Of a stretch of DNA of 61,243 nt, positions 50,493 through 61,079 are shown one piece after another. Numbering within the stretch: position 1 is the stretch's first letter; the number at the start of each line of letters is the position of its first letter. Both the position numbers and the translations under genes were made by a program. The notes beneath the pieces were generated by a model, which was given only the letters and a program-made list of their open reading frames with translations, had not been told where the DNA came from and did no database searches. The DNA is from an uncultured Eubacterium sp. (lineage in GTDB: Bacteria > Bacillota > Clostridia > Lachnospirales > Lachnospiraceae). The stretch spans positions 1-61,243 of the forward strand of contig CAKRIZ010000008.1 in NCBI GenBank assembly GCA_934351445.1, given 5' to 3'.

Positions 50493-52652
50493 TTAGTTTG
50501 CTTTTGCAAATGCACCGGCTTTGTGTTCATTCTCCTTCGGAGCGGGACGGAACAACAGATATAAGAATCCAACGATAAACAGGATTGCTACAACTGTTCC
50601 GATACCGAATGCACCGGTTGTAAATACAGTTCCGATTTGGTAGATGCACATTGCTACGATATAAGCTAAGATACACTGATAGCCGATTGCGATCCAGAAC
50701 CACTTTGCACTGTTCATCTCACGCTTGATCGCACCCATTGCTGCGAAGCAGGGAGCACATAACAGGTTGAATACCATGAATCCGAATGCTGCGATCGGAG
50801 TCATTGCCTGTGCCAGATTACCCCAGATCTCAGATCCATCCTCTGCGACCTCTGCGAATCCGTACAGCATACCAAATGTAGCTACGATATTTTCCTTTGC
50901 GATCAGACCTGTAACGGCTGCGACTGCCATCTTCCAGCCCTCGCCTGCCGTGGTCCAGCCAAGCGGTGCGAAGATCCAGCCGATTGCGCTACCGATCTTT
51001 GCAAGGATACTAGCATTTAACTGCTCTGCCTCGAGCATTCCAAACGCGCCATCTACCCATCCAAAGCTCATTAAGAACCATAAAACGATAGTAGATAATG
51101 TGATGATGGTACCGGCTTTCTTGATGAAAGACCATCCGCGCTCCCACATAGAACGAAGCACATTTCCTACGGTCGGCCAGTGGTAAGCAGGCAGCTCCAT
51201 AACGAACGGAGCAGGCTCGCCTGCGAAAATCTTTGTCTTCTTTAAGATAATACCGGAGCATACGATGGCTACGATACCGATCAGCCATGCACTCCATGCT
51301 ACCCATCCGGAGTTGTCAAAGAACGCACCTGCGATCATAGCGATGATCGGCAGCTTTGCTCCGCAGGGGATAAAGGTTGTTGTCATGATGGTCATTTTAC
51401 GGTCACGATCATTCTCGATCGTTCTCGAAGCCATGATACCGGGAACTCCACATCCGGAACCGATCAGCATCGGGATGAAGGACTTTCCGGATAAACCAAA
51501 CTTACGGAAAATACGATCCATGATAAATGCGATACGTGCCATGTAGCCGCATCCCTCTAAGAATGCAAGGAACAGGAACAGTGTCAGCATCTGGGGCACG
51601 AAACCGAGTACAGCTCCGACACCGGCGATAATACCATCTACGATCAGACCCTCGAGCCACGGTGCGCAGTTGATGGCTTCCAGTCCTGACTGTACAGCAG
51701 GAGGAATGATATCACCAAACAACACATCATTGACCCAGTCAGTCATTGCTGTACCGACTGTCGTGATTGATACATAGTAAACGATAAACATAACCAGTGC
51801 AAAGATCGGAAGCGCTAAAATACGGTTGGTAACAACGCGGTCGATCTTATCGGAAACAGTCAGCTTCTCCTTGCTGTGTGCCTTGGTCATGCACTTATCA
51901 ATAATAGATGAGATGTACTGATAACGCTCGTTTGTCACAATACTCTCTGCATCATCATCCATAGCCTTCTCTAATTTCCCGATATCCAGCGATACATCCG
52001 GAACAGATTTCAGATTTGCAGAGATCTTCTCATCGCTCTCAAGTAATTTGATGGCAAAGAAACGCTTCTCCTCCTCAGGTACACCACTCAGCTTCGCTAC
52101 TACAGAATGGATCGCATCCTCCAGCTCCGCGCCATATGTCACAGGTGCGGGTGCTGCCGCCTTGGATACAGCCTGTGAGACGACCTTCTCTGCTGCCTTC
52201 TTCACGCCGGTTCCCTTTAATGCAGAGATCTCTACGACCTCGCAGCCGAGCTGTTTTGACAGCTCCTCGAGATGGATCTTGTTTCCGCTCTTTGCTACCA
52301 GATCTGCCATGTTGACAGCGATCACAGTCGGGATGCCCAGCTCTAACAGCTGTGTCGTCAGATACAGGTTACGCTCGAGGTTCGTTCCGTCTACGATATT
52401 TAAGATCGCATCCGGACGCTCCGTGATCAGGTAATTTCTCGCTACAACCTCCTCGAGTGTGTACGGAGACAGGGAGTAGATTCCCGGCAGGTCCATGATG
52501 ACAACATCTTTATGGCCTTTCAGTTTTCCCTCTTTTTTCTCAACAGTTACGCCCGGCCAATTTCCAACGAACTGGTTTGATCCGGTCAGCGCATTGAATA
52601 ATGTAGTCTTGCCGCAGTTCGGATTTCCGGCAAGTGCAATTTTTACTGCCAT
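50493..52652 (-). CDS. feoB: Ferrous iron transporter FeoB
   Basis: The protein has 719 residues. The N-terminal G domain (1-170) has GNPNCGKTTLFNALTGSNQF (G1), DLPGIYSL (G3) and VNMADL (G4). A helical regulatory domain follows (about 170-270), then the membrane core with two Gate motifs, GCGVPGIMASRTIENDRDRK near 400 and LLCAPCFAAMGAIKREMNSA near 640. It imports Fe2+. It is downstream of two feoA genes, with a GTTAG-N6-CTAAC dyad in the 151-nt gap before it. Confidence 0.97.
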   Translation of the reverse strand: MAVKIALAGNPNCGKTTLFNALTGSNQFVGNWPGVTVEKKEGKLKGHKDVVIMDLPGIYSLSPYTLEEVVARNYLITERPDAILNIVDGTNLERNLYLTTQLLELGIPTVIAVNMADLVAKSGNKIHLEELSKQLGCEVVEISALKGTGVKKAAEKVVSQAVSKAAAPAPVTYGAELEDAIHSVVAKLSGVPEEEKRFFAIKLLESDEKISANLKSVPDVSLDIGKLEKAMDDDAESIVTNERYQYISSIIDKCMTKAHSKEKLTVSDKIDRVVTNRILALPIFALVMFIVYYVSITTVGTAMTDWVNDVLFGDIIPPAVQSGLEAINCAPWLEGLIVDGIIAGVGAVLGFVPQMLTLFLFLAFLEGCGYMARIAFIMDRIFRKFGLSGKSFIPMLIGSGCGVPGIMASRTIENDRDRKMTIMTTTFIPCGAKLPIIAMIAGAFFDNSGWVAWSAWLIGIVAIVCSGIILKKTKIFAGEPAPFVMELPAYHWPTVGNVLRSMWERGWSFIKKAGTIITLSTIVLWFLMSFGWVDGAFGMLEAEQLNASILAKIGSAIGWIFAPLGWTTAGEGWKMAVAAVTGLIAKENIVATFGMLYGFAEVAEDGSEIWGNLAQAMTPIAAFGFMVFNLLCAPCFAAMGAIKREMNSAKWFWIAIGYQCILAYIVAMCIYQIGTVFTTGAFGIGTVVAILFIVGFLYLLFRPAPKENEHKAGAFAKAN

Positions 52653-57931: not shown

Positions 57932-59833
57932 TTACTGTAACAGTGAGAGTACACCCTGATTTGACTGGTTTGCCTGTGCCAGCATAGACTGTCCTGCCTG
58001 AGCGAGGATGTTGTTCTTGCTGTAGTTAACCATCTCCTCTGCCATATCTGTATCACGGATACGTGACTCAGCAGCTGTGGTGTTCTCTACGACGTTATCT
58101 AAGTTAGAGATTGTATGCTCTAAACGATTCTGGACTGCACCGAGTGCAGAACGCTGTGAAGATACCTTAGAGATTGCATCTGCGATCGCATCGATTGCAT
58201 AAGTAGCTGCAGCGCCGTTGTTGTCAGATACATTGATGCCCTTCACTCCAAGACCCGCAGCACTCATAGACTCAATGTCTACGTTGATCTTGTTTGTCAT
58301 ATCAGCATCTGCACCTACATGTAAACTAAATGAAAGAGCATCTTTCACACTTACAGAACCTTTTGTAATCTCAAACGATCCATCACCCTTATTGAGCACC
58401 TTAGCTCCAGCTCCATCGTCTGTTCCAATAGAACTAGCTTTTTCAAGTTCCATAGCAATTTTCTTGTACGCTTCGTCTTTAGTAATCGTCTTCTCTTTCA
58501 ATGGATCAACACCAGCTGCTGTTACTTTCGTTTCTGCCGTCGCTGCCTTTTCAGTATATGTTACCTGATCGCCCTCTTTAATCTTAGCAATGATATTCTC
58601 TCTGGTAAGCTTATTAGCTGCTGCGTCTTCTTCATCAGCATTTTCAACAATATGGTATGTCTTTGAACCACTTCCTTTTACACTAGAAATTGTTACATCC
58701 TTACCAGCTGCGGAACTCTGAATACCTTTTTTTACATCTTCAAAACTAGTCGGAGTAAAGTTGTCACCTACAACCGTAGTTGTCTTACCACCGATTTCTA
58801 CAGAATCACCTCCTGCTAATCCACCAGCAACAGTAGCTGCTTTCAAATCAGTAAACGCTAAAGTAGACTTTTCTCCATCTGCCAAATCATCTACAATTGC
58901 ATGTGCTTTTCCATTTTTATCCGTAAAAGTGGCACCACTAACTGCAATACTGGTAGCTGTTTGCACCTTTGCTGCTGCAGCTGTTGTATCTGCCCAATCA
59001 CCAACCTTATAAAATCCTGCAGCTGTGTTGGTTCCTCCTGCTGCCTTATACTCATATACTGTTCCATCTGCACTTGTGATCTTGTCGCCAGCTTCAAAAG
59101 TATGACCGTCAATTTTAGCAGTTGTCACATTACCAGCTGCAACATTATCTGTCAGAGTGGTTTTTACTCCAGATTTAATTACGCTATCCCCTGCATTTAA
59201 AACCAAAACATCCACTGTAGCTTTTTTGGAGTAATTATCCTTTGACTTTGCTTCCCCAATTGTATATTCTGTACCTGCAATAGAAATTTTACTTCCATTT
59301 TCCAATTTCTCATTCAGAGTAAACTTAGCTGATTTTCCATCTGCACTATCAACAAGTTTTCCAGCAAGACCTGCATCATGTGCATTTACTTTAACTGTAG
59401 AAGATGCCCCATCCGGAGTTCCCTTCAGTAAGTAAGTCTCATTGAACTTGGTTGTCTCAGATACACGGTCGATCTCTGTTGTCAGCTGGTCGATCTCTGC
59501 CTGAATTGCATCACGGTCTGATGTGCTGTTGGTTCCGTTTGAAGCCTGGTTTGCCAGCTCGTTCATACGCTGTAACATAGAATGAACTTCTGTCAGAGCA
59601 CCTTCTGCTGTCTGCACTGCAGATACACCATCCTGTGCGTTTGTAGATGCACGGTCGAGACCACGCATCTGCTTTCTCATCTTCTCGGAAATGGTTAATC
59701 CTGCTGCATCATCTGCTGCACGGTTGATTCTATAGCCTGAAGAAAGCTTCTCTGAAGACTTTGCCTGTGCGCTTGTGGTTACGCCTAACATTCTGTTAGA
59801 GTTCATTGCTGTTAAATTGTGCTGTACTACCAT
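57932..59833 (-). CDS. fliC: Flagellin with a very large variable domain
   Basis: The start at 59833 (MVVQHNLTAMNSNRML) has AAGGAGGAACATATT upstream and gives 633 residues. Residues 1-140 are the conserved D0/D1 part with EKLSSGYRINRAADDAAGLT and LDRASTNAQDGVSAVQTAEG. The last 100 residues are the C-terminal D1/D0 part ending in QANQSNQGVLSLLQ. Between them lie about 390 residues of Thr/Ala/Lys/Asp-rich repeats of surface domains with no family I recognise. Most Lachnospiraceae flagellins are shorter. Translation is probably controlled by CsrA, coded just upstream. Confidence 0.95.
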   Translation of the reverse strand: MVVQHNLTAMNSNRMLGVTTSAQAKSSEKLSSGYRINRAADDAAGLTISEKMRKQMRGLDRASTNAQDGVSAVQTAEGALTEVHSMLQRMNELANQASNGTNSTSDRDAIQAEIDQLTTEIDRVSETTKFNETYLLKGTPDGASSTVKVNAHDAGLAGKLVDSADGKSAKFTLNEKLENGSKISIAGTEYTIGEAKSKDNYSKKATVDVLVLNAGDSVIKSGVKTTLTDNVAAGNVTTAKIDGHTFEAGDKITSADGTVYEYKAAGGTNTAAGFYKVGDWADTTAAAAKVQTATSIAVSGATFTDKNGKAHAIVDDLADGEKSTLAFTDLKAATVAGGLAGGDSVEIGGKTTTVVGDNFTPTSFEDVKKGIQSSAAGKDVTISSVKGSGSKTYHIVENADEEDAAANKLTRENIIAKIKEGDQVTYTEKAATAETKVTAAGVDPLKEKTITKDEAYKKIAMELEKASSIGTDDGAGAKVLNKGDGSFEITKGSVSVKDALSFSLHVGADADMTNKINVDIESMSAAGLGVKGINVSDNNGAAATYAIDAIADAISKVSSQRSALGAVQNRLEHTISNLDNVVENTTAAESRIRDTDMAEEMVNYSKNNILAQAGQSMLAQANQSNQGVLSLLQ

Positions 59834-59957
59834 AATATGTTCCTCCTTGATCCCCACGATATTTTATCGCCGCATCTTTGATGCGAATTGGGGTTATTAT
59901 GTTATGACCTCCGGGAATCCGTTCCCCGAGGTGTGTCGCGGCACATACATCTGTGCC
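59834..59957 (-). promoter_or_regulatory. Structured flagellin leader with candidate CsrA sites
   Basis: Four hairpins lie in a row: GGCACA/TGTGCC (59940-59957), CTC-G-GGGAA with loop CGGA (59908-59931), CGCATC-TTT-GATGCG (59871-59885) and CGATA-TTT-TATCG (59857-59869), then the ribosome binding site. The second shows GGA in its loop, and UCAAGGAGGA at the ribosome binding site resembles the CsrA consensus. Whether the first two are in the flagellin mRNA depends on the unmapped start. GGCGATAA near 59867 resembles a sigma-28 -10 but has no fitting -35. Confidence 0.5.
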
Positions 59958-60005
59958 ATATTTATAACAAACAAAGCGTCCCGGGTTTTGCTCTGTCTAT
60001 TACCG

Positions 60006-60284
60006 TTAGTGAACTGCCTCCTCCTGCTGCGCACTATGTTTTGCGCGCTCATTCCAGAGAATCCTCTTAATCTCCTGCTGCGCCTCCTCTGAGATCGGAT
60101 TTTCCTTATAATAGCTATCCTTTTTCCTCTCCGGATTGCGTTCCGCGGTATTTCTCGCGATCGGAACCTCCCTCGGCGCATCGATCAGTAAACGGATATT
60201 GTTTCCGCTGCCTCCCGCAAAGACCACGCGGATATCCTCTCCGATATTTACATACTGACCCGGTTTTAAAGATATTTTTAACAT
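60006..60284 (-). CDS. csrA: Carbon storage regulator CsrA with a long tail
   Basis: The start at 60284 (MLKISLKPGQYVNIGEDIRV) has GGAGG 4 nt upstream and gives 92 residues. The first 48 are the CsrA core, with the RNA-binding strand 1 and IDAPREVPIARN near 38-49 (usual EAPKEVPIHR). The remaining 44 are a charged helical tail (KENPISEEAQQEIKRILWN) longer than usual. CsrA binds GGA in mRNA leaders and in Bacillus represses flagellin translation. It lies directly upstream of the flagellin gene. Its antagonist FliW is not in the window. Confidence 0.88.
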   Translation of the reverse strand: MLKISLKPGQYVNIGEDIRVVFAGGSGNNIRLLIDAPREVPIARNTAERNPERKKDSYYKENPISEEAQQEIKRILWNERAKHSAQQEEAVH

Positions 60285-60338
60285 CACTACCTCCATGTTC
60301 CTGTTTCATTGCTTTTCAGTAATTCTTCAACAATTCCT

Positions 60339-60621
60339 TTTGCTACGTCTTGTAACATTTATATCGTTCGTATGCTACATATTGTTAACATCATTTTTTG
60401 ATTTTTGCTACAGTTTGTTACTTTTAACCAAAAAAAGTAAGCTATTACTGATAAATATTGCTATTTATTGGGCATACTGCAAGATATGAATAGTTCTGAA
60501 ACAAAAATTTCACCTTCTTTTGCTACGATTTTTAACGGTTACATTCCACTATTGCGTCTAGTAATTAACATAACTGTTTCCTATTGCTACGGTTTGTCAC
60601 ATTTTATGTAGCGCAAAATTA
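60339..60621. repeat. Array of TTGCTAC-type boxes with a 32-bp step
   Basis: Boxes of the form T-TGCTAC-N3-TTGTTAC, all on the plus strand, have their TGCTAC at 60341, 60373, 60406, 60521 and 60585, with a degenerate one (TGCGTC) at 60553. Steps are 32, 33, then 115, 32 and 32. One group of three lies toward csrA, the other toward the XRE gene, where TATACT (60623-60628) follows. An inverted GTAGC lies at 60608-60612. The gap 60285-60650 holds no gene. Confidence 0.65.
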
Positions 60622-60650
60622 CTATACTATCAACGAAGGTGGGAACGATT

Positions 60651-61079
60651 ATGAACAACAAATTACTTCCGCAAAAATTAAAGGAACTCAGAAAAATAAA
60701 TAATTACACACAGGATTATGTAGCAGAAGTGCTAGGCGTGGTACGTCAGACATACAGTCACTATGAAACAGGGAAAAGGACTCCCGATGCCGCTACTCTC
60801 TATAAATTAGCCGGATTGTATAATATTTCAATCGATGATCTCATGCATCTTACAATGAATGTCGATAGAAATATCTCTTATGACGCACCTGTTCCAACAC
60901 AATCGAGCACTGATCTGGCAGAATATCTTGAATTTTTCAATCATCCTGTCAATAAAAAGAAATATCAGTTTCATACGAATCTGGAACGAGAATTGTTGTT
61001 TTATTTTGATAAGATATCAGAAGAAGATAAAAAAGAAATTATAGAATTCACAAAAATAAAAGCCCGGAAACCACTGTAA
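60651..61079 (+). CDS. XRE-family regulator
   Basis: The protein has 142 residues. Residues 5-62 are an XRE helix-turn-helix (LKELRKINNYTQDYVAEVLG, then VVRQTYSHYETGKRTPDA). The rest is a short helical domain ending in KEIIEFTKIKARKPL, of unknown function. The ATG at 60651 has AAGGTGG 9 nt upstream; a GTG at 60639 lies inside that site. The box array directly upstream suggests autoregulation and control of the divergent csrA gene (inference). Confidence 0.88.
   Translation: MNNKLLPQKLKELRKINNYTQDYVAEVLGVVRQTYSHYETGKRTPDAATLYKLAGLYNISIDDLMHLTMNVDRNISYDAPVPTQSSTDLAEYLEFFNHPVNKKKYQFHTNLERELLFYFDKISEEDKKEIIEFTKIKARKPL

What the first reader, a model, noticed from the sequence alone, without database searches (positions are those of the whole stretch)
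60339..60628. Two triplets of TTGCTAC boxes with a 32-33 bp step between csrA and an XRE gene
Five clear boxes and one degenerate box (TGCTAC at 60341, 60373, 60406, 60521, 60585; TGCGTC at 60553) lie on the same strand. All distances are near whole helical turns: 32, 33, 115, 32 and 32 bp. One triplet flanks csrA and one flanks the XRE gene. Many boxes also hold a second TGTTAC-like half about 10 bp on. Such spacing suggests a protein that polymerises along one DNA face and controls both genes, linking this XRE protein to CsrA and so to flagellin. I know of no described system with this layout.
Basis: partly seen in the sequence, partly recalled or inferred. Interest (0 to 1): 0.75.

Follow-up and report, generated by a model that had tools for sequence, protein, structure and literature searches.

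The report
Phased operator array beside flagellar genes
Next to a flagellar gene, this bacterium keeps evenly spaced DNA docking sites that most likely let a neighbouring phage-repressor-like protein switch that gene off and itself on, a layout also found in related bacteria.

Summary
The boxes are real, far above chance, and conserved. Boxes 1 and 3 of each array are 15-bp imperfect palindromes (GCTAC-N5-GTNNC), not direct repeats. Arrays of three at ~32-33 bp steps lie upstream of most close homologues of this XRE gene that I fetched (mostly Lachnospiraceae; 40 of 49 score high), whatever lies on the other side: csrA-like gene in Roseburia, flagellin in Butyrivibrio-type genomes, other genes elsewhere. 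In the genomes sampled, strong matches lie at xre loci. The half-site broadly co-varies with the protein (GCTAC, GATAC or GCTAT), so the XRE protein is very probably the binder. Where the divergent gene is csrA-like or flagellin, a sigma-28 promoter lies at a fixed place between boxes 1 and 2 (20 of 20 arrays; 0 of 20 beside other genes): repression by occlusion. The last box is centred ~29 bp upstream of the xre -10, with no normal -35: the lambda CI/OR2-PRM position, suggesting self-activation. Roseburia-type loci carry two arrays; the gap between them changes by about whole helical turns. I read it as a lambda-OR-like switch recruited to cellular, often flagellar, genes. Binding is inferred; autoactivation and bistability are not shown.

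The parts
60342..60356 (+). box 1 (GCTACGTCTTGTAAC), array 1; covers the expected start point of the csrA-like gene's sigma-28 promoter
   Evidence: palindrome centre
60361..60368 (-). sigma-28-type -10 element of the csrA-like gene (AACGATAT on the - strand)
   Evidence: the CG of TATCG is 23 bp from the G of box 1 in all 20 csrA/flagellin arrays scored 40 or more
60374..60388 (+). box 2 (GCTACATATTGTTAA), array 1; its end overlaps the sigma-28 -35
60384..60389 (-). sigma-28-type -35 region (GTTAAC; TAAC-N15-AACGATAT)
   Evidence: consensus in PMC3720852 passages
60407..60421 (+). box 3 (GCTACAGTTTGTTAC), array 1
60522..60536 (+). box 4 (GCTACGATTTTTAAC), array 2
60554..60568 (+). box 5, degenerate (GCGTCTAGTAATTAA, followed by CAT), array 2
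60586..60600 (+). box 6 (GCTACGGTTTGTCAC), array 2; centre 30 bp upstream of the xre -10
60623..60628 (+). -10 element of xre (TATACT); no -35 at spacing 16-18
60651..61079 (+). xre gene, 142 aa: HTH_3 domain and all-helical C-terminal part
60006..60296 (-). csrA-like gene, 96 aa, divergent paralogue of CsrA
   Evidence: paralogues in relatives
57932..59833 (-). flagellin gene downstream of the csrA-like gene

Best explanation
The boxes are operators of the adjacent XRE protein. A dimer binds each 15-bp site; dimers on boxes about three helical turns apart face the same side and probably bind cooperatively through the helical C-terminal part. Array 1 lies over the sigma-28 promoter of the csrA-like/flagellin side (box 2 over the -35, box 1 over the start point), so a filled array shuts that promoter. 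The last box of array 2 is centred about 41-42 bp upstream of the xre start, at a promoter with a good -10 and no normal -35, so bound protein there probably recruits RNA polymerase and activates xre, as lambda CI does from OR2 at PRM (recalled). Repressing the neighbour and activating oneself makes a two-state switch possible. Shown by sequence: the arrays, their conservation, their tie to xre and the promoter geometry. Inferred: binding, direction of effect, cooperativity. Bistability is only a possibility.
For: Held-out test: position matrices trained on 33 non-csrA arrays find array 1 in 7 of 7 csrA-type loci (0 of 500 Markov resamplings each) and array 2 in 7 of 7 (0 of 500 in six, 1 of 500 in L005); trained on the 7 csrA-type loci they beat all 100 resamplings in 35 of 42 other close homologues. 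Box 1 to box 3 is 64-65 bp in 34 of 40 arrays. Profile matches in 33 of 36 genomes, and in all 33 the best one lies 43-288 bp upstream of the fetched xre start. Of 60 genus-level genomes 6 have xre and the same 6 have the array; 1 of the other 54 has a weak match inside a coding-like stretch. Half-site goes with the residues before the recognition helix: mostly GVV/GIV with GCTAC, GTT with GATAC in boxes 2 and 3, NIT with GCTAT. Phage-contig relatives with the same YSHYETG helix have several GATAC-N5-GTATC-like sites in 2 of 5. Sigma-28 -10 between boxes 1 and 2 in 20 of 20 csrA/flagellin arrays and 0 of 20 others. At 28-30 bp from the last box centre 37 of 40 loci match TATAAT at 5 or more of 6 (5.9% at control offsets); 0 of 40 have a -35 (4 of 6 or more) at spacing 16-18.
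Against: No binding or expression data. A -35-like hexamer at spacing 19-20 overlaps the last box in 11-12 of 40, so the box could instead repress xre. Box 2 is not palindromic at the box centre. Box steps vary from 28 to 36 bp, and L004 breaks the phase inside array 2 (box 4-5 step 36). L005 has lost box 1 of array 1. Seven of 42 homologues fail the held-out test. Four weak matches away from xre are unexplained. Co-variation and the sigma-28 split follow clades in part: 5 changes of neighbour type on the tree, but well-supported branches force only 1; some loci do not fit cleanly (L027 GIT, L037 QTS, L059 second box GCTAC, L056-L058 mixed). L012 has the sigma-28 geometry without an evident flagellar neighbour. 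Model pTM is 0.44, so the oligomer interface is unknown.
Confidence: 0.66

Rival explanations
1. Plain negative autoregulation: the XRE protein binds the arrays and represses both divergent promoters, with no activation and no switch.
For: The last box overlaps the -35 region of xre; TTGACA-like hexamers at spacing 19-20 in 11-12 of 40 loci.
Against: No -35 at spacing 16-18 in 40 of 40, and a nearly constant 28-30 bp from box centre to -10, which is what an activator needs and a repressor does not.
Confidence: 0.25
2. The boxes bind another regulator (for instance a response regulator reading tandem direct repeats) that controls xre and csrA.
For: Boxes 1 and 3 can also be read as TTGCTAC-N3-TTGTTAC direct repeats.
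Against: Strong arrays lie at xre loci in the genomes sampled, boxes 1 and 3 are palindromic (the profile also matches the opposite strand at the same place in several genomes), half-sites co-vary with the XRE protein, and two phage-contig XRE relatives have the same kind of site.
Confidence: 0.06
3. The repeats are neutral remnants of tandem duplication.
For: All seven csrA-type loci have two arrays, so a duplication probably occurred.
Against: Boxes and steps survive in homologues 56-87% identical in protein while the DNA between them varies; shuffles seldom or never reach the scores.
Confidence: 0.02

Closest known systems
Lambda-type right operator (OR1-OR3) with CI and PRM/PR (details recalled; lambda also discussed in PMC4207663, passages)
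   Same: Three sites on one face between divergent promoters; repression of one side; a site at about -42 of the regulator's own promoter.
   Different: 32-33 bp steps instead of about 24; no Cro-like gene on the divergent side in the window; C-terminal part is helical and not a self-cleaving peptidase; the repressed promoter is a sigma-28-type promoter of a cellular gene.
ImmR of ICEBs1, Bacillus subtilis (7t8i is the best sequence match; PMC4207663 passages)
   Same: XRE regulator between divergent promoters ~130 bp apart, six binding regions, three near each promoter.
   Different: Controls a mobile element, not motility; its site sequence was not compared here.
RcoLS20 of plasmid pLS20 (PMC4207663, passages)
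   Same: Xre-family, represses the main divergent promoter, activates and represses its own, operators and DNA looping.
   Different: Controls conjugation; its operator sequences were not compared here.
SinR, RghR and DdrO (Foldseek matches)
   Same: HTH plus helical C-terminal part; SinR is a switch between motility and biofilm (recalled).
   Different: Only RghR was under E 0.001 (1.8e-4, 134 columns), and with 15 A rmsd; operators of these proteins were not compared here.

Membership tests
XRE (Cro/CI-type) transcription regulators | HTH_3 domain | tested here: met
   PF01381 E 4.2e-16, 59.2 bits against a cut-off of 23
XRE (Cro/CI-type) transcription regulators | palindromic operator | tested here: met
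   boxes 1 and 3; perfect 5+5 palindromes in 13 of the 20 loci L059-L078; not met for box 2
Lambda OR-type switch | three operators between divergent promoters | tested here: met
   (sites inferred, not footprinted)
Lambda OR-type switch | activator site near -42 of the regulator's own promoter, without a good -35 | tested here: met
   activation itself not tested
Lambda OR-type switch | opposing second repressor (Cro) on the divergent side | tested here: not met
   the window's divergent gene is csrA-like; of ten neighbours in relatives scanned, none is XRE-type, five have no Pfam match and L046's is a response regulator
Lambda OR-type switch | two stable states | not testable with these tools
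   needs single-cell expression
Canonical CsrA (neighbour gene) | NCBIfam csrA equivalog score | tested here: not met
   30.4 of 73 bits and 25.6 of 70.1 bits, although Pfam CsrA passes at 59.7 against 27 bits; six relatives also hold a stronger copy in a 72-92 aa frame
Sigma-28 promoter | TAAA-N15-MCGATA-like geometry | tested here: met
   TAAC-N15-AACGATAT in the window; constant spacing in relatives; -35 TAAA and -10 MCGATAa from PMC3720852 passages, the 15-bp spacing recalled

The most novel reading that the evidence does not exclude
A phage-repressor-like switch has been recruited, several times, to host promoters in Lachnospiraceae: the same operator array accepts different divergent promoters (sigma-28 for flagellin/csrA, others elsewhere) and makes a heritable on/off state of flagellin or surface genes in gut commensals, with the doubled Roseburia arrays acting as one cooperative unit held in helical phase.
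Probability: 0.28. Interest if true: 0.82.

Novelty: new variant of a known kind. Interest (0 to 1): 0.6.

Why it matters
Flagellins of Roseburia and relatives are prevalent in the human gut (PMC3720852, abstract start and passages), and I found no described regulator of this kind for them. This gives a named candidate regulator, its exact sites and a geometry that predicts repression of flagellar promoters and self-activation, testable in one reporter experiment. It also offers a natural series of one operator array with different promoters and with three half-site/protein variants.

Tried and rejected
Direct-repeat reading (TTGCTAC-N3-TTGTNAC): dropped for the palindrome. A wide regulon: in six Roseburia-type genomes exact pattern matches occur in five, all at this locus (the sixth, G005, has only one-mismatch matches there); 9 of the 22 matches lie elsewhere, against 30 for the reversed-pattern control. 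The profile found no strong array away from xre, though only 120, 72 or 21 candidates per genome were scored, and no xre search was made in the 200 genomes. Weak matches away from the arrays remain unexplained: G024:C19:20572, G013:C1:5674221, G025:C5:14700, G022:C2:40216. The three genomes without a match are those of L007, L058 and L067 (the last two from distant subfamilies). Boxes at other csrA copies: none in 9 fetched csrA regions, some cut by contig ends (L133-L141; best score 8.9, null maximum 15.3). An RNA element: no Rfam match overlaps the boxes. The 115-bp gap as a fixed distance: not conserved. TTGCTAC pair at 50585/50651: no good second halves.

Rows dropped: one search kept the best 80 of 126 relatives. 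The sigma-28 table counts only arrays scoring 40 or more (40 of 49 close loci: window and L001-L048). Left out: L007, L011, L012, L024, L027, L035, L036, L045, L047 and the distant L049-L080. Of these L011 (FlgL-like neighbour) has TATCG with the 19-bp spacing to TAAC but 26 bp from the called box 1; L012 has the full geometry without an evident flagellar neighbour; L027 has TATCG at other spacings; L054, L064 and L080 (flagellin neighbours) were not called, though TATCG before a GCTAC box is visible by eye in L054 and L064. In one search, seven loci gave other distances (L002, L019, L023, L025, L031, L032, L044), five of them by eye because the script picked another box or -10; re-scored all 40 at a fixed offset, with the last box set by hand in the seven csrA-type loci. 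The first null and that are first-order Markov resampling, not exact shuffles; the matrices were trained on the loci scored, and one search is the held-out check.

Literature searches that found no description of this system. Papers: PMC3720852 (start of abstract, found passages) and PMC4207663 (start of abstract, found passages); all others, search listing only. Lambda, SinR and class II activator geometry are recalled.

Full report
What is there. The five TGCTAC boxes and the degenerate TGCGTC are at the stated coordinates and steps. In the 354-bp intergenic none of 5000 dinucleotide shuffles reached either the count or the number of 32/33-bp pairs. The 14-position pattern with up to 2 mismatches has five matches in the 61-kb window, all here. 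The genes are a 96-aa CsrA-like gene and a flagellin gene on the - strand and a 142-aa XRE gene on the + strand.

Conservation. One scan of GTDB genome contigs with an alignment of 20 XRE homologues found 126 relatives, of which the best 80 were kept, 38-87% identical to the query. In the six nearest (Roseburia porci, R. inulinivorans, R. faecis, a Roseburia MAG and two further MAGs) xre lies divergent to a csrA-like gene and the boxes are kept, except box 1 of array 1 in L005. In most of the other close loci an array of three boxes sits upstream of xre. A held-out test removes circularity: matrices from 33 non-csrA arrays find both arrays in 7 of 7 csrA-type loci (array 2 of L005 is reached by 1 of 500 Markov resamplings, the rest by none), and matrices from the 7 csrA-type loci beat all 100 resamplings in 35 of 42 other close homologues, failing in L007, L011, L027, L035, L044, L045 and L047. 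L007 has only 225 bp of upstream DNA.

Anatomy of the box. In 40 arrays with score above 40, boxes 1 and 3 show a palindrome centred 7 bp after the first G (GCTAC-N5-GTATC and GCTAC-N5-GTTRC; 60% and 61% complementary pairs against 28% background); box 2 (GCTAC, then TTAACAT) does not (22% at that centre). The sequence profile also matches the opposite strand at the same place in several genomes, as palindromes should. Steps are mostly 32 or 30-31 (box 1-2) and 33 or 34 (box 2-3), with 64-65 bp from box 1 to box 3 in 34 of 40, about six helical turns.

The binder. The profile matches 33 of 36 genomes searched, and in all 33 the best match lies 43-288 bp upstream of the fetched xre start. In 60 genomes of the genus-level group, 6 have xre (E 1e-22 or better) and the same 6 have the array; of the other 54 one had a weak match (E 5e-4) inside a coding-like stretch that my own scan does not confirm. 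All six had contributed to the profile, so the informative part is the absence elsewhere. In 200 family-level genomes 4 matched, all genomes of fetched xre loci. The half-site broadly follows the protein: residues GVV or GIV (or near variants) before the RQTYSHYE helix go with GCTAC, GTT (Butyrivibrio type) with GATAC in boxes 2 and 3, and NIT (the ~41% identical subfamily) with GCTAT-N5-ATAGC; 13 of the 20 loci L059-L078 have a perfect such palindrome and 15 of 20 a 31-bp step to the last box. L027, L037, L056-L058 and the second box of L059 fit less cleanly. Of five phage-contig relatives, two (L155, L157) carry several GATAC-N5-GTATC-like sites upstream at 27-39 bp steps, a third has a single GTTAC-N5-GTAAC, and two none; chance was not measured there. 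Together this makes the XRE protein the likely binder; clade structure and the lack of an experiment are the limits.

The divergent promoter. Of 40 arrays, 20 face a csrA-like or flagellin gene, and all 20 have TATCG (the sigma-28 -10, read on the other strand) with its CG exactly 23 bp from the G of box 1, and 19 bp to TAAC of box 2 in the 18 where that word is intact; none of the 20 facing other genes has it (Fisher p 1.5e-11, not corrected for kinship). On the window's - strand this reads TAAC-N15-AACGATAT, close to the Butyrivibrio sigma-28 consensus quoted in PMC3720852 (passages). On the XRE tree the neighbour type changes 5 times (5-6 in bootstraps), though only 1 change is forced by well-supported branches. 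Dropped rows and the exception L012 are listed under Tried and rejected. Boxes 1 and 2 overlie the expected start point and the -35, so a filled array should block the promoter (inference).

The xre promoter. At 28-30 bp from the centre of the last box, 37 of 40 loci have a -10 matching TATAAT at 5 or 6 of 6 positions, against 5.9% at control offsets. None of 40 has a -35 (4 of 6 or better) at spacing 16-18; 11-12 of 40 have one at 19-20, inside the box. The centre thus lies near -41, where class II activators and lambda CI at OR2 sit (recalled). In the GCTAT subfamily the last box is 28 bp from the best -10 in 11 of the 15 loci with a 31-bp step. I infer self-activation; repression is the main rival.

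Two arrays in Roseburia. Array 2 is found in all seven csrA-type loci. The gap between arrays is 115, 96, 96, 95, 85, 96 and 95 bp (10.95, 9.14, 9.14, 9.05, 8.10, 9.14 and 9.05 turns at 10.5 bp), so length changes by about whole turns. These are only three or so independent lengths, and L004 breaks phase inside array 2, so that its box 3 to box 6 distance is 14.57 turns. Suggestive, not proof.

The protein. HTH_3; closest solved sequences are ImmR and other XRE HTHs (12 matches). The AlphaFold model (mean pLDDT 82, pTM 0.44) has five N-terminal and four C-terminal helices; Foldseek gives RghR as the only match with E below 0.001, and DdrO, ImmR and SinR among the next. Domain packing is uncertain.

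Verdict. A lambda-OR-like operator array of a cellular XRE regulator, coupled in Roseburia to a csrA-like/flagellin unit and elsewhere to flagellin or other genes. The layout has precedents in phages and mobile elements (PMC4207663, passages); its use on sigma-28 flagellar promoters, with the same array accepting different promoters, I did not find described. New variant of a known kind.

Noticed in passing
59834-60005 (- strand), between csrA-like gene and flagellin: The flagellin leader folds strongly as RNA (-58.8 kcal/mol, z -5.5) and holds a hairpin with a GGA-containing loop before the ribosome-binding site; by eye GGTAATA and ACCCGGGA recur in five of five relatives looked at, TTGTTATAAAT-like in four. 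No Rfam match. Possibly a CsrA-type or other leader element.
   Followed up: partly
60006-60296 (- strand): The CsrA-like protein misses NCBI's CsrA cut-offs by far; six relatives carry 2-5 csrA genes each, one strong copy plus divergent ones, many in longer frames.
   Followed up: partly
L059-L078: A related XRE subfamily (~41% identical) with GCTAT-N5-ATAGC boxes at 31-bp steps is divergent, in about 15 of 20 loci by eye, to similar-looking proteins of about 210-270 aa with a signal-like start; L067's has no Pfam match.
   Followed up: partly
L010, L013, L015, L034 upstream of xre: A small similar-looking ORF (about 78-90 aa) is the divergent neighbour in several non-flagellar loci; the one scanned (L010) has no Pfam match.
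   Followed up: no
L026, L033, L038: In these loci the array faces a large membrane protein gene; the L026 one is YfhO (PF09586, E 7e-111) and the other two start alike.
   Followed up: no
L155 and L157 (IMG/VR contigs): Phage-contig XRE proteins with the YSHYETG helix carry four or more GATAC-N5-GTATC-like sites upstream; possible source of the module.
   Followed up: partly
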